Assembly: GCA_004151065.3 (NCBI GenBank)
Contig: NWUY0300064450.1
Span: forward strand, 1-23,612
Source: Larix sibirica
Lineage: Eukaryota; Streptophyta; Pinopsida; Pinales; Pinaceae
Direction of reading: 5' to 3'
DNA: 23,612 bases
The notes beneath the pieces were generated by a model. It saw nothing but the letters and a program-made list of their open reading frames with translations. It searched no databases and was not told the origin of the DNA. How positions within the stretch are numbered: the stretch's first letter is position 1; each line of letters opens with the position of its first letter. The position numbers and the translations under genes are program-made. This document shows positions 174 to 22,664 of the stretch, piece after piece.

Positions 174-830
174 ATGAATGTTCTCTCCCTTAATGTTAGA
201 GGAGTAGGGCATGCCCACAAACAAGCCTTCAAAATACTTTTTAAAGTCTATAAATTTTATTTTGTGCTCCTACAGGAAACCATGTGCTCTGATTAGAAAT
301 TTGTTGATTTCTTATTTACTATTTGAAAGGAATTAAATTTGTGTTCCTTAGATGTTGTAGGGTTATCTAGAGGCCTTTTTTCGAGGTGCAACTCAAATTT
401 TGACTCAATCTACTCTTCAATATTGACTTCAACAACTGTAGTGGAGCTAACAACAAAGGAGTTGGGAAAATATCTTAGTATTGCCAATATTTATGGACCT
501 TATGGGAATAGGAAGCCTTTTTGGGATTACCTCGTTGATTATGGATTACTTGAACGAGATAATGTGACCATGGGGCGATTTGAATTTAACACTAAACTCA
601 AGGGAAATTTGGGGAGAATGCAAGAAGAAATAATCTTGGTGACTACTTCTCTTAATTCTTTGAGACACTCCATCTTATTGATATGGAACCCGTGAAAGAA
701 ACTTCTACTCGGAGAACTACTAGAAGAGGAAGATAGGGGATTTCCAAGAGAATAGTCTACTTCTTGATGGCATAAGCTCCTTTTTAATGATTAAATGAGA
801 ATCAAATATTGGGTAGGCACTAGGGTTTTG
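174..830 (+). pseudogene. LINE-1 ORF2: APE-like endonuclease domain
   Basis: The frame opening at ATG 174 reads MNVLSLNVRGVGHAHKQAF and soon reaches LLQET. This is the N-terminus of an exonuclease/endonuclease/phosphatase-fold LINE endonuclease, whose Glu in QET is a metal-binding catalytic residue. The enzyme nicks target DNA to prime reverse transcription. A stop follows near 294. Homology resumes at 339-695 with the conserved stretch NIYGPYGNRKPFW, and then, in another frame, SKR-like residues near 745-770. The usual GDFN motif is corrupted (MGRFEFN). At least three frame changes are needed, so it is non-functional. Confidence 0.8.
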
Positions 831-1699
831 TCATATCATCTTCCAATTTTATTTAACAATGGAAGGGGATGAATGGAAACCCCAATCCCACTTAAGTTCA
901 ACCACATTTTCCTGGTAGACCCGAGGTTTAGGGAATTACTCATTAAGACTTGGAAATGATTTGACATTAAGGAGATGGATTCTGCATTGGAGCAATTTGC
1001 AGACAATATTAAAAGAATAAAGATTGTGTTAAAATGTTGGGCGAAATATATTGTTTTCAGGTCACAAAAAGATCTTATATAGGTGGAGAAGAGCATAAAT
1101 GCTCTTTTTTTTAAAACAATAATGTAGGGGTATTCTTATATGAGGAAACATAGTCTTTGAGGGAGTTTGAAAGAAGGAAAAAGGAGCTCTTAGATAAGAA
1201 ATAAACCTAATGGAGACTCAAAAGTAGAGCCTTATATTGGATTCATTAAGGTGACAATAATGAAAAATTATTTCATAACTTTGCCAACCATAGAAAAAAC
1301 ATCAATACAATATGGAAAATTAGGCACCCCAATGGTAGCAATGTTATCTCTTTCCACGAGATAGTATATGGGGGAAGACATCATTATATATATATATTTC
1401 ATGATATAGGGAGAACCAATATTGGGGGAATTCTAGAAATTCCGAGTTTATGTCCAACTCTTATAAATGAAGATTCAAACAGGGAGTTGGAGGCAAAAGT
1501 TACTTCATCAAAACTAGACGCAATATTATCTTTTTTTTTCAAAAGGAAAAAAGTCTTGGTCATAATGGTTTATTTGTAGAATTCTAATTGGGGTTCTATG
1601 ATATTTTGGAGCAAGATTTGTTGCATGTGGTGGAAGACGTGAGGTTGTTTGGGAAAGTTTTGGGAGCATTAAATTCCACCTTTAGAACTCCTATCCCCC
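831..1699 (+). pseudogene. LINE-1 ORF2: linker between endonuclease and RT
   Basis: Forward frames carry scattered segments typical of this stretch in plant L1 ORF2: HLPILFN near 838, FNHIFLVDPRFRELL near 895, ALEQFADNIKRIK near 985, FERRKKELLDK near 1165, and HNFANHRKNINTIWK near 1275. They fit the usual helical linker, in which a host LINE has an SRALWxxxGDxNTKFFH-like motif. Stops and frameshifts lie between all of them. A short TA microsatellite sits at 1383-1397. A minus-strand open frame at 836-1096 is a shadow. Confidence 0.65.
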
Positions 1700-2520: not shown

Positions 2521-3880
2521 ATTGTACAACAAAGTGGAAGCATTGATTTGAGTGTGGTGTAATTGATGGTTGTCTCATGGGGGGAGGTTAGTGTTGGTTA
2601 AGAAAAATTGGAGAGAAGTCTAGTATAGTGACTAACAATAGAAAATATCTCCAAAGGAATACTCAATAAAATCACAAAGACGTGTTTTTTCTTTTTATGG
2701 ACCAAGAAGAGGGAAGAAGAAGGTATCCCTGTTGTCATGTGGACCATATAAGTTTCTCTACCAAAGGAGTTGGAGGGGTGGGGTTTGAGACATATTCATG
2801 TATTCAGTTTATCACTTGCAACTAAAAGTATATGGAGGTTAGTGTATTATGAAGAGTTTTGGGGTAGTGTTATGAAAGACAAATATCTCAAGGGGAAGAC
2901 TATGGAAGAGTGATTCAAGGCAACTATACAAAATTATCCATGGGCATATTGAGTTTTAAAATCCTTAATCAAAGTTTATCCCTTAATTGGAAATTGGGTT
3001 TGATGGTAATTTGATTGAGAATGGAGTCAAGGTCAAAGTTGGAGAGAATCCTTGGATAGGAGGCAAATCTAATTATAGGCTCTATAAGGCATTGCTAGAT
3101 GATTTACATTATCAGGGGAGTCACTACTTAAAAGAGTCAACTATTGTGAGAGCAAGAGATGATCGGTTTCAAGGATGGAAAATAATCTAACTACTCCATC
3201 TCCGAGGAGACATGGTTGGGGAATGGAGGTAGTATGTGAAGAAGCTTATTACAATTTTGTACATTTTAATGAAGGAGAGGACATTCTTAAATGGTCCAAA
3301 AACACAGGAACAAGTGTGTAGACTATGAAGTTGGATATTTAGCAAAATAGAAGAGGATGGGGATAGAGACATAATACGATGGTGGAGGTCAGTATGGAAG
3401 CTAACTTGTCCATTAAAAATTAGAATTGTAATGTGGTTTGCATTGGTAAATGAATTACTTACTGGGATAATGTGCAAAAGGTGAATTGTGTGGGGCCTAA
3501 TAGATGCATCCTTTGTAAATCAAATGAAAATTAATAAACCATTTGTTTGTGTCTTGCTCTTTCTCTAAATTTGTTTAGTTGGAGGTTATAAAGTCTTTGG
3601 GATTTAAGTGAAAATGGGACAATGAGACTCTAGAAGAAAGCAAGATGGAATGGACAATTAACAAGGTTGTAGCCACACATAGGGCTCTAGTTTATATGTA
3701 TTGTTATGGGATATGGATAACTAAGAATCAAATGGTTTTTAAGGATAAGGATAGATAGGAATCAAATGGTTTTTTTGGGATCTGGAATTCTCTCTAACAC
3801 AAGTTGCATATGAGATTAGGGTGGCCTTGGAGGGAATCAATAGTCCTTTAAAGGAAAAAAATACTTAGGAACTTATCAAT
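2521..3880 (+). pseudogene. LINE-1 ORF2: RT C-terminal and zf-RVT-like region
   Basis: Continues ORF2 beyond the palm. Seen in order: RDWI and KVEALI near 2510, SHGGRLVLVKKNW near 2575, the VKVKVGENPWIGG stretch at about 3015-3063, then WKLTCPLKIRIVMWFALVN near 3398 and CILCK near 3509. The last two are the typical zf-RVT (reverse transcriptase zinc-binding) signature that ends many plant LINE ORF2 proteins. Several frames are used. A 16-bp segment is repeated at 3725-3740 and 3759-3774, a local duplication inside the region. Confidence 0.8.
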
Positions 3881-3899
3881 GTCTTGTATTGATAAAGGA

Positions 3900-4222
3900 A
3901 AACCAAGGGACTTTTTTTATGAAGTGTGTCAAGGAGTACTAAGTATTTGTGGTGTTGGAGTGATATTTTTCATTGACGCTCAACAATATTTGTCTTTAAG
4001 GTATGCATATGGGCAAGGGACGAATACTTGTGCACACTTAAATGCTCTCTAGATTCCATTGGGAATAACTTATGACAAAGGTACAAAATAATTTTTTTGA
4101 TCTTTCCTTATGTTTATTGAGAATTTAACACTAAATAAGATAACTTGTTCATGGAGGCATTAATTTTGAAAGAGGGTACCTTTACTTAACATGCTTTCAA
4201 GGGAGGTACTCTCCTCTCAGCT
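3900..4222 (+). pseudogene. LINE-1 ORF2: C-terminal RNase H remnant
   Basis: One frame from 3909 reads DFFYEVCQG, then SICGVGVIFFIDAQQYLSLR, GQGTNTCAHLNAL and TYDKGTK. This is the pattern of the RVT_3-type RNase H found at the C-terminus of some plant LINE ORF2 proteins, where one expects FDGAxxG and AExxAL. Here the first Asp position reads Tyr-Glu and the catalytic Glu of AELNAL reads His (CAC), so activity is lost. After a frameshift, ALILKEGTFT and AFKGGTLLS near 4155-4222 give the end of the protein. The domain would remove RNA from the cDNA hybrid. Confidence 0.65.
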
Positions 4223-4229
4223 ACATAAA

Positions 4230-4320
4230 CAACTTTATATTAATTATGTAGTGAGTTTTTTTGGCTTATATAAGCAACTTTATATTAATTATGTTACACT
4301 TAGTGAGTTTTTTTTTGGCT
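4230..4320. repeat. Imperfect tandem duplication, about 45-50 bp
   Basis: The string CAACTTTATATTAATTATGT occurs at 4230 and again at 4275, each followed within 4-12 bases by AGTGAGTTTTTTT and GGCTTATA. The second unit carries a small insertion and a longer T-run, so the duplication has begun to diverge. It lies in the LINE-1 3' region. Confidence 0.7.
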
Positions 4321-4390
4321 TATAGTATAAGTTTAATGGATGTAATGAAGAATTGTATAGGTATGCTAACTTTATGTTTTTGTTTTATAA

Positions 4391-4500
4391 AAGAGTCAAC
4401 GATGTAAATGATACAAGGAGGATTGCATTTATTTTGGAATACTTATACAAGAGTCAATGATGTAAATGATACAAGGAGGATTGCATTTATTTTGGAATAG
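4391..4500. repeat. 58-bp tandem duplication with one CpG-to-TpG difference
   Basis: Two units start at 4391 and 4449. Over about 50 aligned bases the only difference I see is ACG in the first against ATG in the second, the typical product of methyl-cytosine deamination. The second unit ends where it meets LINE 3' sequence near 4498. The duplication is therefore young compared with the LINE that contains it. Confidence 0.85.
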
Positions 4501-4634
4501 GAGAGGAGTTAGATAGTACTGGAGTACTATAAACTATTTATGTCATAATTTTATATGGATAGTCTATGTATATTTGATTTCAAACTCTGAAAGATCAGTA
4601 TAAATATTTTTTTCATTGGAAAAAAAGCAATAAA

Positions 4635-4687: not shown

Positions 4688-5142
4688 CAAAACCCAACTG
4701 GGTATTCACAAAAAGCTCTAGTTATAAGGCAATGCAATGCTTTCAACAATTGATCAAGAGGAATGTTGATGGTGGAAACCAGTCTAGAAATAAAAAGTCC
4801 CTATGGACTAGGTTATTCTTTTGGTTGGATTTGAGCAATAAATCTCCTACCTAAGAATTTGAGCAATAAAGAGCTTGGTTTGGACCATGGTATTGCATTC
4901 TTTGTAAACCAAGTGAGGAGTCCCTCCAAAACATCCTTATGGATTGTTCATTCTTTAACGAAGTTTGAAAAGAGGCTTTATCATTGGCTAGTAAGGTTGG
5001 AATTTGGGATGGGTAAATCTAGCCAAGGGTTATAAGAAATGGATAGAGGAGACAATGCTAGAAACAATAGATCCCTCTCTATAATAGTTCTTTACAAATT
5101 ATGGAGCATTGGGAATTATTCTCTTTTCAAGAATCCATCTTA
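4688..5142 (+). pseudogene. Second LINE fragment: zf-RVT-like region (LINE-2)
   Basis: Forward frames show SLWTRLFFWL near 4800, then CILCKPSEESLQNILMDCS near 4896-4955 followed by FFNEV and KEALSLASKVGIWDG. This is the zf-RVT cysteine pair and following helix of a plant LINE ORF2, distinct in sequence from the same region of LINE-1. After a frameshift, a GYKKWIEETMLET segment (near 5026) and LYKLWSIGNYSLFKNPSYVD (near 5092-5150) continue it. The fragment stops abruptly at 5142 where the LTR begins. Bases 4688-4790 are unassigned. Confidence 0.7.
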
Positions 5143-5733
5143 TGTTGATCGCGAAAATGGTTTGTTTCACAATTTTGACCTCTTGTTATGCTAAGCAAGA
5201 AGAAGTGAGAATGGTACCCAGGCTTATAGCCTAATAAGCTTCACTCAACCGATGCTTCTAAAAGAATCCAAGCCACAATGAGAGCATACAAAATGAAAGG
5301 TTATTTTTTGAATATTAATTTTATTAATTTTTTTATCATAAAACAAAGTCAAGAAGACTGAAAACGATAATTAATTACAACCTTTACAGGTAATCATAAC
5401 AAGCACATGAAGCTGAAAAATATATATACATAAACTGACTCATTCCTTTTTTAAGAAAACAAAAGATAAATAAACTATCTGAAGCAGTGAGCTAAATTCA
5501 AGAACTAAAATAAAGTCAAGCAAACATAGTATAAACCAAATATACATAAAATTTTCAAAATCTAAATATGTAAAGGCCGATCTTTATTCAATATTTGATT
5601 TCATATGCGAATAACAAATCATTTATAATCCCTTATGATCTCAACAACATTATTAGTTTTGCAAGATGATAATCAAACAACAAAATATAAAAAAACAAGA
5701 ATTTGATATAATTTGCTACTGGTTGGTAAATCT

Positions 5734-5745
5734 CCTTATATAGCC
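5734..5745 (-). promoter_or_regulatory. LTR TATA box of element 1
   Basis: On the minus strand the sequence is GGCTATATAAGG, a textbook TATA box, inside the stretch shared by both LTRs. It would mark the U3/R region, with RNA starting roughly 25-35 bases downstream (about 5700-5710) and running towards 5143. The equivalent site in the other LTR near 16992 reads CTATACAAG, so only this copy keeps the consensus. This is a prediction from sequence only. Confidence 0.55.
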
Positions 5746-6420
5746 ATTAATTCCCTCTTCATATGAAAATACTAATTAAAGTTTGTCATTTGGATGCCTC
5801 ATATGGATACACAAAAGTATAACAATGATACATCAAACAATCATTCACAGATTCCAAGCTACAATGCCTATGTCATTAAGAGAGAACTCATGTTGTCAGC
5901 TTAATTATTAGACTCAGAATAACTCAGTATGCATATAAAATTTAACCAACAAATATAAATCTCAAGCACTAGCATATCATAGCCTTGCTGACAACCCCCT
6001 TGTCTCTCCATTTGATTACCCTTTTAAATCCAAGTCACAAGAGTTTAAGCAGTTATTTCTTTAACTGTTTATTTTGGGCTTAGTCATATTCAAATGGAAT
6101 AATAAGTAATAATAAAAGGGACAAGTTGAACCAAGAGAGTGGGGTAAAGAAAGAGGGCCCCACTCTTTTGTCCATGTTATGAGCGATATGGGGGATGAAT
6201 CCCAATGCTAGCAATATTATATAACCACATTGTAACTCCCTAGGCCCAATCATATACAACCATCAACCCACCATGTATTATATCACCATCACATAAGATA
6301 TGTTTTGAGCCATTGTTTCACAAATATTATTTATGGATTGGAAAATATAAACCAAATATGTTGATCATAACCAAAGAAAAATAAATATGATCACTCCATG
6401 CCAACTTTATGCATGGATGC

Positions 6421-6530
6421 CACCATAATAATCTCTCAAACATTATCACTATATAATTTAATTCAACCACACCAACACCATAATAATCTCTCAAACATTA
6501 TCACTATATAATTTAATTCAACCACACCAA
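6421..6530. repeat. Perfect 55-bp tandem duplication
   Basis: 6421-6475 and 6476-6530 are identical over all 55 bases, starting CACCATAATAATCTCTCAAA. The lack of any difference, inside a heavily mutated LTR, shows the duplication is much younger than the element. Confidence 0.95.
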
Positions 6531-9480: not shown

Positions 9481-9598
9481 ACCAAAGTTTGGTCAACACA
9501 TCATACCACATCACCAAAGTGTCAACACATCATACCACTAACCAAAGTGTCAACACATCATATCACATCACCAAAATGTCAACACATCATACCACATC
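9481..9598. repeat. Four-copy tandem repeat, 28-32 bp units
   Basis: Units begin ACCAAAGT or ACCAAAAT at 9481, 9513, 9541 and 9570, each followed by GTCAACACATCATAC or a close variant. Unit lengths are 32, 28, 29 and 29 bases. Differences are a few point changes and small indels. Confidence 0.9.
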
Positions 9599-10095: not shown

Positions 10096-10558
10096 TCATG
10101 ATTGAGAAGGCCCCATTTTAGGGCAATGGTAAGGTTTTAGATGTGATCCATTTATAGCATAGGAGAACAAGCAGTCATCCCCATCCTTCAACAAGTAAGA
10201 GTTTGATTCGATAATGGAAGCCATGATATATGGCCCCAACCATAATTTCTGGAATTTAGTATCCTTACCCTTATCAGAATGTGTGGAATCCCACAACAAT
10301 ACTTGTTGTCTAACTTTGAAAACCCTTGATTTATCTTTCTTATTAAAAAAAAAATTGATTGTTTTTTTTCTTTTTTCTAGGTTTGCCAAAGCATGCTTTT
10401 GTTGTTCTTCTAAGGCAAGTAATATGTGGAACCTCTGGGATAAGTCAAACTCATTTAGTTGTTCAACTTGGAAGGCTAGACAAAAGGAAGGAAACTGTAT
10501 TTCAACATGCATGATAGTCCGTCGTCCATACGATAGTTGGAAAGGAATTTGATTGGTG
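10096..10558 (-). pseudogene. Element 1 integrase C-terminal domain
   Basis: The open frame 10096-10512 extends upstream without a stop to 10558. It begins IPFQLSYGRR, the segment after the integrase core where related elements have TPFQLVYG-like sequence. It continues with a basic, helical ALEEQQKHALANLEKRKK stretch, VRQQVLLWD, and the GPY/F-type motif FQKLWLGPY followed by SYLLKDGDD and NGSHLKPYH. This domain binds DNA and helps place the cDNA in the host genome. It is one of the best-kept frames in the window, but it has lost its catalytic core (see 10559-11105). Confidence 0.85.
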
Positions 10559-11105
10559 TTTTTTTTTTAAAGTAAACAACATTATATTATATCATATAAA
10601 AAAAGCATTACTTATGAGCATTGGAAGTCACATGTTCAAACCTCCAGCCAATCTTGTAGTATCAAACCTTATAACCCAGCCAATAACCTTGAAAGTATTA
10701 CATATCCAACAAGGGGGCTTTAAGAGCCAAGAACAAGAAATACAACTGTTCATAGACCAACAACACCTAGCTCAGCCAAAAAAGAACAAGAGTTTGAAGT
10801 TTATCATCGAGTAGTCTACATTGACCCTAGCAAGACTAGAACCATATAATATTGACACTACAAAATCCAGAGATACGAATTCCAAAACCAACCAAACAAA
10901 AACTGAGAGTCTGCGTGAATACATAAACAAAAAACCTAGCCATTATAGAGCTCAAGCCTAGAGTTGACGAACATAATCCACATCCTATGCAGTTGAACAT
11001 AGAGACCAGGATATCCAAATGCTTATTAAACTATTGCATAACATAGGTGAGGTTCTACACCTCCTTCCTGTGCTCGAATAGAATATCCCAGTATTCACTA
11101 GAGGC
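10559..11105 (-). mobile_element. Segment replacing the integrase core, probably a truncated retroposon
   Basis: The integrase zinc-binding part ends near 11106 and its C-terminal part resumes at 10558. The roughly 165 residues with the DDE active site are absent. The sequence between has no integrase similarity I can see and ends, in minus orientation, with ten consecutive A (10559-10568) directly against integrase sequence, as a LINE 3' end would. A short coding-like stretch (WDILFEHRKEV, then NKHLDILVSM) lies near 11090-11010. I infer insertion of a 5'-truncated LINE with loss of the core. A target-site duplication is not convincing (CACCAAT against CACCTAT). Confidence 0.5.
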
Positions 11106-11382
11106 ATACTGACAAGCATCATGAGAACGAATTTATAAGAGTCTTGAAAAATCATGGGCCAATAATTCCCAATTTGAAGATCTTGTGAGCAGTTGTCTTT
11201 GCTACAAAATGCCCACCAATGAGGATGGTTTCAGTGGCCATGCCATGTAGAACATTTACCATGCTTCGTGCTATTTCATCATCAACACATTGCAACAACA
11301 TTCCATTGTGGGATCGTGAAACAAAAAAATACCCAAATTTTAAAGCTTCTAGCCTTAACCTCCTTCGCTCATGACTTTCCAA
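11106..11382 (-). pseudogene. Element 1 integrase N-terminal zinc-binding region
   Basis: The frame reads RRRLRLEALKFGYFF, NGMLLQCVDD, LHGMATET, IGGHFVAKTTAHKIFKLG, and after a one-base shift near 11155 continues WPMIFQDSYKFV and DACQ. This is the H-H-C-C arm that precedes the integrase core in Ty3/gypsy elements: His in LHG, His in GGHF, and a final pair where CxxC is expected but only the second Cys remains. The start overlaps the preceding reading frame at 11355-11382, showing a frameshift. Confidence 0.75.
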
Positions 11383-11925
11383 CCCTTCATGACATCTTTC
11401 ATTTTTGATATAGTAAATGATGTTTTTATACCAAGGTGATCAATCATATCTACATCTCCATCTTCTGCATAAAATAAATCTGAGAGAGGATTGTCATTAG
11501 TTTCAAGGTTAGAACTTGATTCAGGATGTTGGGCCAAGTGAAGGGCTAGATCCCTACCCTTGATGGTGTTAGTAGTGATAACGGAGAGATCATGTTCCTG
11601 AATTTTGGTGAGCCAATGTGGCAACTTGTTAGAAAGGAAAGTTTGAGACAACAAAAATTTTGCTGTTAGTAGTGGCACTCGATGTATGCTTTCCTAAAAC
11701 GAACTGCCTGAATTTTTCAATGGCTTTCACCAATGAATACACATATTTTTCAATTAGTGTAAAATTCAAGGAATCATCTGTAAATATTTGACTTGTAAAT
11801 GCGATAGGATGCTCAAAACCTTTTTTTTTGTCTTTTTGAATGAGGATGGTTGAAATGGTCTCTTCAGTTGCATTGATATATATGATGAAATATCGTGAAA
11901 AATAAGGTTTTTCCAACATTGGGGC
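11383..11925 (-). pseudogene. Element 1 Ty3-type RNase H, catalytically degenerate
   Basis: Follows RT directly. It begins IIYINATEETISTILIQK, where Ty3/gypsy RNase H normally has TDAS; the first catalytic Asp is Asn (codon 11872-11874). It continues HPIAFTSQIF, IEKYVYSLVKAIEKFRQFV and LGKHT. A one-base shift near 11665 leads to LLTAKFLLSQTFLSNKLPHW where TDHKSL is usual, so a second acidic residue is also absent. The end is IQEHDLSVI and GRDLALHLAQHPE. The fold is recognisable but the active site is not, in contrast to the extra RNase H at 13255-13690. Confidence 0.8.
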
Positions 11926-12780
11926 AAAAGAGGTGGCTTGCTTAATCTCTAGAAAGGCTACGTTTGCATCTTGTGTACAGATAATTGTTTGATCACCTTT
12001 AAGTAAGTTATGTATAGGTTTTACCATCCTATAAAAATCAAGGATAAATCGCCGAACAAAATTAAATTTTCCCATAAAAGATTGGATTCCCTTTTTTGAA
12101 GTGGGGGTAAGAAGATTCTGAATTGCTTTGACCCTTTCGGGATCAATGCTAATACCGGAACTAGACCCAATGTGACCAAGCAATTTTCCTGTAGAGACAC
12201 CAAAAATAGACTTTGTAGGGTTAAGAGAGATGCTATATTGCCTGTAATGCAAGAAGACTTGTCTAAGATTACCAAAATGATCTTTTCTCAACTTGGAGTG
12301 GACTATTAGATCATTAAGATAAATATGAATTATGATTCCAATTAGGTCATTGAAGGCCACATGCATGGCCCTTTGTAAAGTAGCATCGATTTTTATCAAG
12401 CCAAATGGCATGCAATCATAAGTGAATGTTACTCACCTTGTAGTGAATTTGGCCTTGTAGTGATCCGTCTTTTTAAGGTGAATCTAGTTGTACCCTAACA
12501 AACAATCAAGAAGGGACATTGTTTGGGATCTAGTCACTTGCTGCAAGATCAACTCCATGTTTGGGAGAGGGAAGTTGTCTTTTACACTCAGTTTGCAAGG
12601 GCTTGAAAATCAACACATAGACAAATGAAACCATTTTCTTATGAATAGGAACTAAGTTCACTACCCACTCAAAATATTTTATTGAGAAAATTATGTGGGT
12701 TGCAAGCATCTTTTCAAGCTCTATCTGAAGGATAGCTTCGAGGGAATATTTAATGGATCTTTTCTTTTGTCACTTAGGAG
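11926..12780 (-). pseudogene. Element 1 reverse transcriptase
   Basis: Blocks in minus-strand order are ELEKMLATHIIFSIKYFEWV and NLVPIHKK (about 12730-12630), then DNFPLPNMELILQQV in another frame, SLLDCLLGYN (motif A, Asp kept) and MPFGLIKIDATLQRAM at 12411 (motif B, normally MPFGLxNAxxTFQRxM). Motif C follows as IYLNDLIVHSK, where YLDD is expected; the first Asp of the pair is Asn (12313-12315), so polymerase activity is lost even without the stops. After it come FGVSTGKLLGHI, IDPERVKAI, LLTPTSKKGIQSFMGKFNFV and RFILDFYRMVKPI, the usual connection to RNase H. The open part is 11629-12411. Confidence 0.9.
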
Positions 12781-13254
12781 TAGCTCATTCTCTAATAGGA
12801 ATGACATGTTGAACAATTCCTAGGTCAAACCCTCACAAGTTTGCATATGACAATGCAGAGATATGACAAAATTCACAAAGGAGAGTGATGAATTGCTCTT
12901 TCTCCGAGTTGGAACAATCAACACCTATATAAACTACCTTTGATTTTTGTTCTGACCTGAAATTAATAGGAATAATATCTCCAATATTATGTCTTGACTC
13001 TTCATTCATAAGTGGGATTTCCCCCCCAACATTGTTGGAAGAAAATGAGCCTTCTAGCGAAGCTGGGCCTCTGGGATATTTGTTTTCTCCAAGATTTATG
13101 ATACCAGACGAATCATCTTGTTCATTTGTGAGGAAAGCATGTATGCTTTCATCATCAAAAAATACTTTCCATGAATCATCATTATTAGGAATGCGAGGCC
13201 CGTAAATGGAAATAATTGCACAATCTAGTTTTTCAACCAGTGTTTGTCTATCGG
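12781..13254 (-). pseudogene. Element 1 spacer between upstream RNase H and RT
   Basis: Decayed pol sequence with no named domain. Fragments on the minus strand after the upstream RNase H read as mixed coding with many stops. It occupies the place of the linker that normally carries the segment just ahead of RT. Its length, about 470 bases, is ordinary for such a linker. Confidence 0.45.
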
Positions 13255-13690
13255 GTTTGCTGCAAATGCATCTAGATTATCCATAATTGAGTTGACCCCC
13301 CTATGATTGAAGGCCATATTGAAGGAGGAGAACTTCCCAATGAAGTCCCATTTCAATTTTGTGTATCTACACAATTATTTATTTATAGGAGTATACACTT
13401 TCCTCATCATATTTACAACTAACTCCGAATCTTTGAAAATGGCCAAGTGTCTACAACCCAAATTTAGCACACGTTCTAATCCCAACAAAAGTTATTTAAA
13501 CTCTGCAACATTGTTAGTACATGCAAAATTTAGTATGAAAGCAAAGGTATGTGCCTTACCTAAAGGGGAGTAAATAGTGACACTGGATCTTTTTCCTTCA
13601 TTAGAGGAAGCATCGTCAAAATGCATATCCCATAGTTGATCATCATTATCTTCTACTAAGAGCATACTAAAATATTTAATTTCTTCCTCA
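13255..13690 (-). pseudogene. Extra RNase H domain upstream of RT in element 1
   Basis: A single frame with two stops (the first at 13492-13494) reads LWDMHFDDASSNEG, IYSPLGKAHTFAFIL, TNNVAEF, LLLGLERVLNLGCRHLAIF, KDSELVVNMM, and later VNSIMDNLDAFA. This is the RVT_3/archaeal-type RNase H pattern, with TNNVAE and DSELVVN as hallmarks. All four acidic positions are present: Asp 13615-13617, Glu 13501-13503, Asp 13429-13431 and Asp 13279-13281. It lies after protease and before RT, not after RT. It would cleave RNA in the RNA:cDNA hybrid. A plus-strand open frame at 13307-13573 is its shadow. Confidence 0.85.
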
Positions 13691-13719
13691 ACAAAGATAG
13701 AATAGGCACCTAAATCAGA

Positions 13720-14337
13720 CTCAACAAAATTAATAGAAGGTTGCGGGAGGGTTTCAATGTAAGGGGAGATTCTCTCTACTCAATAGGAAATTATGTTCTT
13801 GGTGCCCTTGGGAATAATAAGACAGGTTCCATCCATATAATAGTACCAACTAGTGAAAGTTTGCTAGTTCCTTGCTAATACGATGGAGTAATTACTCACT
13901 CCCATTTCCATTACATGAATGTTATAGGTTGTTTGAATTTCAGGACGGGCACACATTACTAAGGTAACATCCTTGATTTCCCCTATTGTGGCCCGTCATT
14001 GCTCGTTAAAGGCTAGCACATGCCTAGGATTTTCATTGGTGCAAGACAATCCCAACTCTTCCATTATTGTTTTTGGAAAAACATTACACCCAAACTCACC
14101 ATCAATTAGATAACAATGTGCTATCTTGTCCATTATCTCCATCCAGATGTATAATGGTGGATTTTTTGGAGAAAGATGGGTATAAAATTTCCCTAGGACT
14201 TCATCTTGAATTAGTTTGTCATCACTAGCCACTACTAAGTTAGTGGCTGAAGTGGAAGGGTATGAAGTACCTTTATTTTTTAGTCCTTTAGTTAAAATCC
14301 TTTTCAGATTTTCTCTTTGTTCAAGTGTGTAGTCCAT
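13720..14337 (-). pseudogene. Element 1 aspartic protease region
   Basis: The frame 13996-14337 (113 codons) ends a linker and enters protease: IWMEIMDKIAHCYLIDGEFG, then CNVFPKTIMEELGLSC and NENPRHVLAFNEQ. LIDGEFG sits where retropepsins have (L/V)(I/V)D(G/T)G(S/A); the Asp is kept but the next Gly-Ser is altered. Beyond the stop at 13996 the homology continues as GEIKDVTLVMCARPEIQTTY, NYSIVLARN (usually ILGRxW) and ERISPYIETLPQPS to about 13740. The enzyme would cut the Gag-Pol polyprotein. Confidence 0.75.
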
Positions 14338-14399: not shown

Positions 14400-15660
14400 A
14401 AAGGTATAAGAACATGGTGTAGACTATTGTTGCAAAAAACCAACAACACGTATATCAATAGTATGCGTAATATTTGTAGCAGGTTGCTTTTGAGATGATA
14501 CAACATGATTTTTGGCAAAATTATTTAAATTTATGTTGCTATAATTATTACTTCTGATATTATAAGCCTGATTTCTGGCCACAATAGCCAACACATCTTC
14601 ATCGCCCACCCAATCCAATCCATTTACCACATGGTCGGTTTTCTTTCCAAAAATCTGCTCCCTAGTGACTTTTAGGACCTCACAAGTATCAGGATCATGA
14701 TGTTATTCACAAAGATTACACCAAGGCGAGACAGTAATGTTTGGCGTTGAGTATTTTGTGACTGCACATGAGTAGATGTAGATGAAATATTGTCATGAAC
14801 AAGAGGTACTGCTTTTATTCTTTCAAAAGTTACCATTCTATTGTTGATGTCTTGCATCAATTGTAAAATAACACTCATGTATACAGGTTGGTTAGGTTCA
14901 ACTAGAGATAAGCCCATTCTCATAGCTTGTTCCACATATTCGAGGCATGTATGAAGATATGAAGCTAGATCAATCACATTTCTTTCCTCCAACCAACAAT
15001 GGTATGAAGGTGGAAGAGTGTTATAATACTGGATTTGAGCAACCTGACTATGAGGCCTAATAAGTTCAGGGATTCTATCATACAACTTGGTGAAACACAA
15101 GTTAAAATCCTTTACGGTTTCACTAGAATTGTAAGTAAGTTATTTTATTCCCTTAACTTGTTGGTTGGGATTTGAGGCTAACCATAGGTAGATTTGAACC
15201 AATACCATAACTCTGCCCAGGTGGAAAATACTTTTGGTGGTAGGTCAAAAAATTCCGTAGCATCTTTCCCTTCAAGAGAATCAACAAAGAGACGCATACA
15301 TGTATCATTATCATTCACCCCTATATTATAACATGCATTGAGATGCTCATCAGCAATACGGGTTCCATTTCTTGAAAATTTCAGCAAAGCTCTTTGAATT
15401 TGGGTAATGGTGCAGTAGCAGGTGTCATATTCAAAGGTGAAGGAACATGCCAATGAGTGTTATTTATGCCCTCTTCAAAATGGAAAAGACCGAATTTACA
15501 CACCACTTTGTCGGGATTAGAGGTTGAACCTATAGGAACATAAATACTATATGTACTCCCCAAAGTGTATGAGGTCAAAGATTGGGGAGAACCTATAGAA
15601 AATGAGGAACATGAAACATATGAGATGCCCACAATGGATGTCATTTTGGATTTTACGGAT
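14400..15660 (-). pseudogene. Element 1 gag (capsid and zinc knuckle)
   Basis: Frames 15381-15644, 15178-15453 and 14672-15100 together form a Ty3/gypsy gag. Seen in order are a Ser-rich N-terminal part, then DEHLNACYNIGVNDNDTCMR, RLFVDSLEGKDATEFF and WAELWYWFKSTYG, the retrotransposon gag core, then VKDFNLCFTKLYDRIPEL and LEERNVIDLASYLHTCLEYV. After a frameshift near 14715 comes a zinc knuckle, CNLCE-x-HHDPDTC (Cys-x2-Cys-x3-His-x4-Cys, with one stop inside), then EQIFGKKTDHVV. The frame 14424-14630 follows. Gag would coat the element RNA in a virus-like particle. Confidence 0.8.
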
Positions 15661-16372: not shown

Positions 16373-16378
16373 AGAAAA

Positions 16379-17157
16379 TGTTGATCACCAAAATGGTTTG
16401 CTTCACAATTAACAATTTTGACCTCCTGTTAGGTTAAGCAAGAAGAAGTGGGAATGGTACCTGATCTTATAACCTAATAAGCTTCACGCAATTGATGCTT
16501 TTGAAATAATCCAGGCAACGACGAGAACATACAAAATGAAAGATTATTTTTTGAATATTAATTTTTCATAATTTTTTTTAATTATTGTCATAAAACAAAG
16601 TCGAGAAGCTTGAAAATGTCAATTAATTACAACCTTTATAGGTAATCATAAAAATCATATGAATCTAAAAAAAAAATATACAAAACTGACTCATTCCCTT
16701 TTTAAGGAAAAAAAGATAAATAAACTATCTAAATTAGTGAGCTAAATTCAATAATTGAAATAAAGTCAAGAAAACAAAGTATAAACCAAATATATGTATA
16801 AAAGATTCAAAATCTAAATATGTAAAGGCTGAGGTTTATTCAATAATCACTTCTGATCTCTGCAAAAACTAGGACTAGAAATTGTTCCCAATTATCATCA
16901 ATGTTATTAGTTACGCAAGATGACAATCAAACAACAAAATACAAAAAAAATTGATATAATCTACTACTGATTGATAAATCTACTTGTATAGCCTTTAATT
17001 CCCTTTGCATATCAAAATACCAATTAAAATTTTCCATTTGGATGCCTCAACCAGATACACAAAAGTATAACAATGATACCTCAAACAATCATACACAGAT
17101 TCCAACCCACAATGCCTTTTCTATTAAGACAGAACCTATGCTATTAACATAATTATT
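16379..17157 (-). repeat. 5' LTR of element 1, U3 part truncated
   Basis: The inner edge TGTTGATCACC at 16379 lies six bases from the PBS. Homology with the LTR at 5143 runs to about 17157, including shared strings AGCAAGAAGAAGTG, ATTAATTACAACCTTTA and AAATCTAAATATGTAAAGGC. It then stops abruptly at protease sequence of element 2. If the 3' LTR is really about 1.98 kb, some 1.2 kb of U3 is missing here. If instead the LTR is about 770 bp, the edge is near 17149 (ACA before TAATT). The TATA position is mutated. Confidence 0.75.
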
Positions 17158-18487: not shown

Positions 18488-19303
18488 TCACCCCTGAAGT
18501 AGAACCATCCTTGGGTATATAAGGCAACAAGGATTCCAAAAACCATTCCAACAACAATTCAGGGGCCGAATAGTGGCCTTAATCATCCTCTTCCTTCTAC
18601 ACCATTCTTGGATATTATTCGAAATATGGGTAGCCTTATTCTTTCTAAGTGTCGACAACAAGTCAATACAAACATCATACCAGACCGAGAGTTGAAAATG
18701 ATTTAAAACTACCATTGCGAGGTCATGAAACCAATGATAGGATGACCCTCGCAATTCAGTAGACCATTTAGTTGGTACTCCTGTTAGAGTGAATTGAAAC
18801 AACCATAAATGAATTGAACCATAATTCAACGAATTTGATGAAAACCATAAATGGAAATTTATGCCATGATCCCCTGGGGCTTCACCAGTTTTCCCTTCAA
18901 ATTTTGGAATATCTGAAGGTAATTTGGTTGGGACTGGGGGCCAATTTGGATTGTGACACACCGGGTCATTCATTAGTTTTGATAAATCTGAAAAATTCAA
19001 AGTTGCCAAAAAGGGAAGTCTAGGTTGTGTCATAGTAGTATTTTCATATGGTATGCAAGGAGGAAAATTCCCACTCATCAGATTACCAAAAAAATGGTAA
19101 GAGTTACCCCCTACTGACATGCCTTGCGAGGGGAAAACCCCTTGCATAACATTCCATTGAGCTTGGATAGGGTTTCCCCTTGCCAAAATTCCAGATACTG
19201 AAGAAGGATTAATTCCAGTACGACTAAAAAATGTGAAAGGATTCGACCTCACATGCATGGAAGGTGATTGAAAACCTCCACCCATTTGACTATTCCATCC
19301 CAT
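18488..19303 (-). pseudogene. Element 2 gag core, 271-codon open frame
   Basis: The longest open frame in the window. It begins in a Gly/Asn/Ser/Pro-rich region (MGWNSQMGGGFQSPS) and enters the retrotransposon gag core at about residue 105: LSKLMNDPVCHNPNWPPVPT, KLPSDIPKFEGKTGEAPGDH, LFQFTLTGVPTKWSTEL, LAMVVLNHFQLSVWYD, LLSTLRKNKATHISNNIQEW. It is highly typical of a plant Ty3/gypsy gag, though substitutions at several usually fixed positions (for example RLFQRTLTG-like to WLFQFTLTG) show decay. A stop ends the frame before the knuckle. It would form the particle shell. Confidence 0.9.
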
Positions 19304-19640
19304 GAGTGGATTTGCTCCGAAGACAGGTCCAAAAAATTGGAAATATCCACTTCCACTTGAAGGGGTGGGTTAGGGAATATGCTCTCCACCCCTGGGAAAA
19401 TATTTAAAAGGTATTGAGGAGCTTCCTGCCCCACTACTAGGGCTTGAAAAAATTGGATTAGAAGTGCTAGGAACTTGGGGTATACTCACCATTGGTATCC
19501 CAGACGAAACAATATTATAGCCAAGGAATGTAGATAATGCAACAATCAAAGGTTGAGTGATAACAACTAATATTGGAAACGAGTTGTTAACAATCGTAAC
19601 CATTATATCCATAGTAGCTTGGGTCATATTTATTGTCTAC
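19304..19640 (-). pseudogene. Element 2 gag N-terminal low-complexity region
   Basis: The frame 19370-19627 reads MTQATMDIMVTIVNNSFPIL and then a Ser/Pro-rich tract (PQVPSTSNPIF, SSPSSGAGSSSIPF). A shift near 19375 is needed to join the 18488-19303 frame; the overlapping frame 19249-19434 is the out-of-frame continuation. Such low-complexity N-termini are common ahead of this gag core. Confidence 0.6.
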
Positions 19641-19768: not shown

Positions 19769-20143
19769 TTATGACTCCGAAGTGATTGGAATCTGCACAA
19801 TAACTAGATTGTGAGGTCCAATAAATGGAGGGTTAAAAGGTCTAACAAAGCCTTCAACCTCAAGATATTCTACCCTAGTAATTTTAGGTGCAAAAGTGTT
19901 CGAAACTGAAACATTTGGTTCAAACCATTCAGAAGAACCCATTGGATCAAAAGATATGGTCGAAAGTGCGATACTTGGTTCAAACCATTCAGAAGAACCT
20001 GTTGGCTCAAAAGATACAATTGAATTAAGTTGACACCTATGAGGAGGTGGTGGAGGATCCACTCTTTCTAATGAAAGATTTTGAATCCTTCTAGAATGAC
20101 GAAGTGGTTGGATACTACCCTTAATTAACATAACAATATACAC
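19769..20143 (-). pseudogene. Element 2 upstream open frame with a 20-residue repeat
   Basis: A 124-codon frame upstream of gag contains RHSRRIQNLS, a run of five prolines, and a tandem 20-residue unit with core GSSEWFEP, present twice (DNA period 60 bases, 19915 and 19975). I recognise no domain. It may be the original gag N-terminus separated by a stop and a frameshift, or a leader ORF. It ends in an ITSES-like tail; about 130 bases then separate it from the next gag frame. Confidence 0.45.
19908..20035. repeat. In-frame 60-bp tandem duplication
   Basis: TTGGTTCAAACCATTCAGAA occurs at 19915 and 19975, followed by near-identical sequence to AAAAGATA. The 60-base period keeps the reading frame on the minus strand, which makes this duplication old enough to have possibly been carried while the ORF was active. 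Several differences between units support that. Confidence 0.85.
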
Positions 20144-20770: not shown

Positions 20771-20787
20771 CTTTACATTTATTATGT

Positions 20788-21058
20788 TTGATTTGATGTT
20801 GAGCTGGTAGGCTCTGGAGCATAAAGGTTTATTTAGAATTTTTTCTTTTTTTTAATTGTTGAGTTGGTAGGCTCTGGAACATCAAGACTAGTTACATTGT
20901 TATGTTTAATTGGATGTTGAACTGGTAGGATATAGAGCATCAAGATTTATATAGACTTATTATGTTTTGATGTTGAGTTGGTAGGATCTGGAGCATCAAG
21001 ACTAGTTACATTGTTATATTTGATTTGATGTTGAGCTGGCAGGATTTGGAGCATCAAT
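20788..21058. repeat. Five-copy tandem array, about 58-bp unit
   Basis: The core GTTGAGCTGGTAGGxTCTGG begins at 20798, 20858, 20916, 20972 and 21030, giving periods of 60, 58, 56 and 58 bases. Each core is followed by AGCATCAAGA or a variant, and most units by a TTATTATGTTTGAT-like spacer. Units differ by point changes and a T-rich expansion in the second. It has no open frame of note and could be an LTR-internal or satellite-like array. Confidence 0.9.
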
Positions 21059-21060
21059 TA

Positions 21061-21920
21061 CATAAAGGACATGATTATTATGCTACTTATCTTCTCTTAA
21101 TATTTTTAACTATCGGGGAACAACCACCTAAAGAGAGACCAAGCATGCTAGAGATGGGATGACTCTTTAATTAGTTACTAAATACAAGTAATAAAGAGAT
21201 AGGACAGAATGTGAGGACAAATCTATAATAAATAAATTAAGAAAATTAAAATATATAAAGATAAAGAGAGCTGGAAAAATCTAATTGTTTTATAGAAAGA
21301 GAATAAAAAAGAAAGAAAGAAAATCAAACAAAAGAGAGTTTTTTCCTAAATATAGAGAAAGCACACAACATAAAAAAATAGGAGCCTTTCTCCCCCAAAA
21401 TAATAAAATGGTAGAGAGTGGACATTATACGGGGTAATGGTCCGTAGTACACTGGAAGGTTTAGTTATAGATCCTTGAGCGCTCAGTTTTCCATGGATAA
21501 GTATATGGCTATTCCAGGATGGACTATGTAAGGGGATGAAAATTACAGGATTCTACACAGAGCTGGTAAAACACCTTGTGGCTACTCTGCAGTTAGTAAG
21601 CAAGATAGATAACAATAACCTAAGTCTCTCTTCTCTAGTGTGCTTGGTCTTGCTTGGGGGTGACCTATAGAATGAACAAGGAACTGTTCAAGGTCTAAGG
21701 TTGGGAGGAGCGTGGAATTTCCCCAAACAATTGGAAGTTTAAAGGCTGATAAGTACCCTAAAACTGTTTATTTATTTGTTATTTCACTTGTATTAGGCAT
21801 TAATGAGACCAACACCTTAGAGCTGTCTATCTTATGTGCATGACTAATTGTTTATTCTGCATATTGAAGGATTTGATTTATTATGAAATCTAGTTTTAGT
21901 TGGAAATAACCGTTTTAGAT
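21061..21920. other. Non-coding region, A/G-rich in part
   Basis: No coding or RNA gene recognised. Bases 21220-21360 are strongly A/G-rich on the plus strand, with GAAAGAAAGAAAGAAAAT near 21311 and a TATATAAAG string near 21252 that could be a TATA box if an LTR starts at 20749. The remainder shows nothing I can assign. Confidence 0.35.
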
Positions 21921-22070
21921 TAATGATTTGCTTGTCAATCTAAGGTTTAACTAATCTTGTATTTAAATATACCCGTGTATACAATTCTATTTTGTTAATG
22001 ATTTGCTTGTTAATCTAAGGTTTGAATAATTTTGTATTTAAATATACATGTGGATATAATTCTGTTATGT
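21921..22070. repeat. 75-bp tandem duplication, diverged
   Basis: Units start at 21921 and 21996, both reading TAATGATTTGCTTGT then AATCTAAGGTTT and GTATTTAAATATAC. Several point differences separate them, so this duplication is older than the perfect ones elsewhere in the window. Confidence 0.85.
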
Positions 22071-22540: not shown

Positions 22541-22664
22541 GCCTCATAGGCATCATCCTTGGTCAAATAATTTTGCACAAGCTATATATGGACGAGCCTT
22601 ACGCCTCATAGGCATCATCCTTGGTCAAATAATTTTGCACAAGCTATATATGGACGAGCCTTAT
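22541..22664. repeat. Perfect 62-bp tandem duplication
   Basis: GCCTCATAGGCATCATCCTT starts at 22541 and 22603. The two 62-base units appear identical, up to the GGACGAGCCTTA end. The event is therefore recent. Confidence 0.95.

What the first reader, a model, noticed from the sequence alone, without database searches (positions are those of the whole stretch)
11383..13690. Dual RNase H: intact-looking extra domain before RT, degenerate one after RT
Seen: an RNase H-like domain lies between protease and RT with all four acidic positions kept (13617, 13503, 13431, 13281), while the Ty3-type RNase H after RT has Asn for the first Asp (11872-11874) and lacks the TDH-type Asp. Known: archaeal-type RNase H (aRNH) was acquired by plant Tat-lineage Ty3/gypsy elements, usually reported after RT-RH, and retroviruses have a degenerate first RNase H plus a second active one. 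Inferred: this family moved catalysis to a newly acquired upstream domain. It may be a known lineage or an under-described domain order.
Basis: partly seen in the sequence, partly recalled or inferred. Interest (0 to 1): 0.75.

Follow-up and report, generated by a model that had tools for sequence, protein, structure and literature searches.

The report
Decayed retrotransposon with extra RNase H
This is an old, broken copy of a plant jumping gene that carries a second, archaeal-style RNase H in front of its reverse transcriptase; the arrangement is real but has already been described in gymnosperms and clubmosses.

Summary
On the minus strand, between two LTRs (about 5142-5909 and 16378-17157), the order is gag-like ORF, protease, RNase H-like domain (13255-13710), linker, RT, Ty3-type RNase H, integrase remnants. 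The upstream domain matches Pfam RVT_3 (1.5e-9) and keeps D-E-D-D plus the archaeal-type Arg, but has two in-frame stops. The Ty3-type RNase H has lost all four catalytic positions. A nested insertion is unlikely: of 45 examined among 150 listed RVT_3 hits of this genome, 7 loci carry a Tat-type RT beside the hit on the same strand, and 7 of 7 have the domain upstream of RT. This is published: an additional RNase H between protease and RT characterises TatI (clubmosses) and TatII (gymnosperms) (PMC6317226, passages), and PMC10508981 (whole text) calls it structure #2 and finds native RNase H degraded in all its aRH-bearing structures. Verdict: a dead, old copy (LTR K2P 0.17) of a known kind of element. 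Aside: one relative, L024, has the upstream domain twice in tandem, which is not among that paper's five structures.

The parts
16378..17157 (-). 5' LTR (approximate ends)
   Evidence: 641 of 794 aligned columns identical to the other LTR
5142..5909 (-). 3' LTR (approximate ends)
   Evidence: same alignment; K2P 0.169 over 754 ungapped sites
14672..15139 (-). gag-like ORF
   Evidence: no Pfam hit; weak tblastn match to L009, 5.6e-4
13906..14295 (-). protease region, one in-frame stop in the matched stretch
   Evidence: tblastn with the L024 protease stretch, 3.9e-11; no Pfam hit
13255..13710 (-). additional archaeal-type RNase H (aRH), two in-frame TAA codons, D-E-D-R-D kept
   Evidence: RVT_3 1.5e-9; alignments
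12848..13204 (-). linker between aRH and RT, in another frame
   Evidence: tblastn with the L024 linker, 1.7e-10
12019..12549 (-). reverse transcriptase, motif YLND
   Evidence: RVT_1 1.4e-7 on 11629-12432; tblastn with L024 RT, 1.5e-42
11532..12006 (-). native Ty3-type RNase H, catalytic positions lost, frame break between 11695 and 11678
   Evidence: RT_RNaseH_2 9.5e-19
11167..11451 (-). RH-integrase spacer and integrase N-terminal remnant
   Evidence: tblastn with L024 tail, 2.7e-12
10147..10437 (-). integrase C-terminal remnant
   Evidence: tblastn with L024 integrase C part, 2.6e-8

Best explanation
A decayed, old copy of a Ty3/gypsy LTR retrotransposon with the domain order PR-aRH-RT-RH-INT, the order published for TatI/TatII (structure #2) of the plant Tat lineage. 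Shown here: the order, the kept D-E-D-R-D of the upstream domain, the loss of the native domain's catalytic positions, and the same pattern in seven other loci of this genome. Inferred: in working relatives the upstream aRH removes RNA from the RNA/DNA hybrid during reverse transcription, and the native RNase H survives as a non-catalytic tether, as the connection domain does in retroviruses.
For: RVT_3 match; order collinear in 7 of 7 loci with a Tat-type RT beside an RVT_3 hit; aRH columns D, E, D and R kept in 9 of 9 domain copies and last D in 7 of 9, native RNase H first Asp in 0 of 8 and the other three in 0 of 7; P0003, from another source, reads protease end, aRH and linker in one open frame; published order and decay.
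Against: No RT tree was built, so the place within Tat is not tested. This copy has stops and frame breaks, so one pol ORF cannot be shown in it. Two of nine aRH copies lack the last Asp (L023 Tyr, L029 Asn). The loci were found through RVT_3, so relatives without aRH would have been missed.
Confidence: 0.95

Rival explanations
1. 13255-13710 is a fragment of another element, for example an L1-type LINE with its own archaeal-type RNase H, nested between protease and RT in this copy only.
For: Many RVT_3 hits of this genome lie beside RVT_1 or zf-RVT domains (10 of 10 ORFs scanned), so such donors exist.
Against: The same order in seven other loci of moderate identity, and protease end, aRH and linker in one open frame in P0003.
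Confidence: 0.01
2. [quoted passage not shown]
For: In this copy the linker is in another frame than aRH and RT, and frames are broken, so one ORF cannot be shown in the window.
Against: aRH lies after the protease; protease, aRH, RT and most of RH share one frame class (coordinates); P0003 reads protease end, aRH and linker without a stop, P0002 and P0004 aRH and linker.
Confidence: 0.04

Closest known systems
TatI and TatII (Neumann et al. 2019, PMC6317226, passages)
   Same: aRH between PROT and RT, native RNase H after RT
   Different: Nothing found that differs except the decay of this copy; RT clade and host not tested
Tat structure #2, clusters E, F, G, J (Biryukov and Ustyantsev 2023, PMC10508981, whole text)
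   Same: aRH upstream of RT within pol, native RNase H degraded
   Different: Cluster not assigned here
Tat structure #1, Ogre and Retand (P0043 as an example)
   Same: Archaeal-type aRH and decayed native RNase H
   Different: There aRH follows the native RNase H; here it precedes RT
Retroviral RT-connection-RNase H
   Same: Decayed first RNase H with a second one that keeps its catalytic residues
   Different: The added domain is downstream and of Fungi/Metazoa type (as stated in PMC10508981)

Membership tests
Tat, TatI/TatII (structure #2) | LTR element with Ty3/gypsy order, RT-RH before INT | tested here: met
   LTR pair; RT, RH, then integrase remnants
Tat, TatI/TatII (structure #2) | Additional RNase H of archaeal type (D-E-D-D with Arg) | tested here: met
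   RVT_3; columns D, E, D, R, D in the window; criterion from PMC5348765, passages
Tat, TatI/TatII (structure #2) | aRH between protease and RT | tested here: met
   Window and 7 of 7 loci upstream of RT; protease hit before it in 6 of 7, none in L029
Tat, TatI/TatII (structure #2) | Native RNase H degraded | tested here: met
Tat, TatI/TatII (structure #2) | aRH in the pol ORF | tested here: inconclusive
   Window broken; P0003 open from protease end through aRH to linker
Tat, TatI/TatII (structure #2) | RT falls in the Tat clade | not tested
   No tree built, no reference set held
Tat, TatI/TatII (structure #2) | Host is a clubmoss or gymnosperm | not testable with these tools
Retrovirus-like dual RNase H (Tat structure #1, Ogre, Retand) | aRH directly after native RNase H | tested here: not met
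   aRH precedes RT; no aRH hit after RH in the seven loci
TatIII | aRH after integrase (as in PMC6317226) | tested here: not met
   aRH at 13255-13710 precedes RT

The most novel reading that the evidence does not exclude
With aRH in front of RT, the catalytic RNase H would sit on the other side of the polymerase from where retroviruses have it, perhaps released by the protease and acting in trans. L024, with two tandem aRH copies before RT, might be one member of a replicating double-aRH subfamily.
Probability: 0.1. Interest if true: 0.45.

Novelty: already known. Interest (0 to 1): 0.15.

Why it matters
As a find it adds one more decayed copy to a published lineage. Tat elements are a natural second run of the retroviral step 'gain a second RNase H, disarm the first'; the upstream order shows that the disarming does not depend on where the new domain sits, a point already made in PMC10508981. 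How an RNase H placed before RT serves reverse transcription is described there as not yet understood.

Tried and rejected
Rejected: nested insertion (seven collinear loci); chance resemblance (RVT_3 1.5e-9; 37% identity over 146 columns to the L009 domain); copy-specific decay as the sole cause of the native RNase H's lost residues (no readable relative keeps them).

Led nowhere: an RT-anchored search of the window's genome, which would have tested for relatives without aRH, was asked 16 times and never answered. Ustyantsev 2015 is not held; I know it only through the papers that cite it. Target-site duplication, exact LTR ends and primer-binding site were looked at by eye only and not settled. 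No tree was built and no structure predicted. The Japanese cedar paper listed gave no TatII passage in its main text.

Full report
What is there. The window holds an LTR retrotransposon on the minus strand. Its LTRs lie at about 5142-5909 and 16378-17157 (641 of 794 columns identical; K2P 0.169 over 754 ungapped sites). Reading 5' to 3' on the minus strand: a gag-like ORF (14672-15139, weak match to L009), a protease region (13906-14295), an RNase H-like domain (13255-13710), a linker (12848-13204), RT (12019-12549), the native Ty3-type RNase H (11532-12006), a spacer with the integrase N-terminal remnant (11167-11451) and an integrase C-terminal remnant (10147-10437). The integrase core pieces of the relative L024 gave no hit in the window at E 0.05.

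The upstream RNase H. It matches Pfam RVT_3 at 1.5e-9, 38.2 bits against a cut-off of 21.6; the RNase_H model matches below its cut-off. In the PDB its best sequence match is chain 3hst_B, protein Rv2228c (1.5e-5), then two entries named ST0753 and ribonuclease HI. The domain is nevertheless broken by two in-frame TAA codons.

The native RNase H. Against the Ty3 RT structure 4ol8 the first Asp is Asn and the second Glu of Ty3's GELELL is Tyr. That this second Glu is the catalytic one is recalled. Aligned with relatives, the third Asp column falls in a Val-Pro stretch beyond a frame break; the fourth column, placed by a recalled motif, is Leu. The window's RT motif is YLND where L024 has YLDD and L009 YFDD, so that change looks private to this copy, while the RNase H losses are shared.

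Relatives. One search listed 150 RVT_3 places in the window's own genome (150 scored of 10,285 first-look candidates); the window's own domain is not in that list. I examined 45 of the 150: ranks 1, 5, 9 ... 149 (38 ranks in 37 regions, L009-L045), rank 34, which lies in region L011, and ranks 2, 3, 4, 6, 7 and 8 with 1.5-kb flanks (L001-L008; L001 and L005 repeat ranks 1 and 5). A Tat-type RT on the same strand was found in 7 places (L009, L012, L023, L024, L028, L029, L040). In 7 of 7 the aRH lies upstream of RT; in 6 of 7 a protease hit lies before it (none in L029); in 7 of 7 native RNase H follows RT; integrase pieces follow in 6 of 7 (none in L009); in 0 of 7 was an aRH hit seen after the native RNase H. 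In L042 an RT match lies on the strand opposite to its RVT_3 hits and was not counted. Since the loci were found through RVT_3, they cannot show how common relatives without aRH are. Ten long ORFs from 10 of the 30 other regions were scanned: 10 of 10 carried RVT_1 or zf-RVT, one of them below cut-off, as in L1-type LINEs that carry an archaeal-type RNase H (that reading is recalled). An ORF of an eleventh region, L011, gave RVT_3 and a sub-cut-off RNase_H only.

Catalytic columns across copies. aRH, nine domain copies (the window, six loci with one copy and both copies of L024): D 9 of 9, E 9 of 9, D 9 of 9, R 9 of 9, last D 7 of 9 (Tyr in L023, Asn in L029). Native RNase H: first Asp 0 of 8 (Asn in the window and L009, Phe in the other six); Glu 0 of 7 (Tyr, His, Gln), third Asp 0 of 7, last Asp 0 of 7, L009 being readable only at the first. 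Outside this genome, a protein search with the L009 domain gave 82 proteins among 158 candidates, among them P0003, where protease end, aRH and linker run in one open frame, and a haloarchaeal and a nanoarchaeal RNase HI (P0044, P0057). P0043 shows the other order, RT-RH-aRH, with Ser at the first Asp of native RNase H.

Known or new. Known. [quoted passage not shown] PMC10508981 (whole text) analysed 92 species and found five structures in 43 genomes; its structure #2, aRH upstream of RT, was found in three clubmosses and all studied gymnosperms, where it was the most abundant except in two Gnetophyta, and native RNase H was degraded in all identified structures with aRH.

How it probably works. 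The order, the kept aRH residues and the lost native residues are shown. That aRH does the RNA removal and the native domain acts as a tether is inference by analogy with retroviruses, and is the view of the papers cited. Whether aRH acts in cis from in front of RT or after release by the protease is open.

A side find. L024 has two copies of a stretch of about 630 bp with aRH in tandem between protease and linker (92% identical over 638 columns). The first copy is open through the domain; the second has a stop. None of the five structures of PMC10508981 has two aRH before RT (its structure #5 has two aRH in sequence, proximal and distal to native RNase H, in hornworts). It is one locus and may be a private accident; one further paper search listed nothing on it by title.

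Noticed in passing
L024 (G000:C8880:19400-27400), 3268-3904 and 3894-4531: Tandem duplication (92% identical) that doubles the aRH domain between protease and linker; first copy open, second with a stop.
   Followed up: partly
window 10560-11160: Between the integrase remnants lies sequence without a match to the relative's integrase core, ending by eye in a poly-A run near 10560; perhaps an insertion.
   Followed up: no
window 18488-19369 (-): A 293-aa open frame outside the LTRs without a Pfam hit; by eye it looks like the gag of another element.
   Followed up: partly
window 327-695 and 1250-1579 (+): Open frames that by eye resemble LINE pieces; no Pfam hit.
   Followed up: partly
window 4385-4499, 6421-6530, 9492-9595, 19897-20016, 20779-21057, 21920-22069, 22541-22663: Short tandem repeats of 47-75 nt units, two of them exact pairs (6421-6530, 22541-22663).
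   Followed up: no
C2302, C4724, C6675, C11346: Other contigs also carry two RVT_3 hits within about 1-6 kb, several with equal scores; apart from part of C2302 (L011) and C4724 (L028) they were not read.
   Followed up: no
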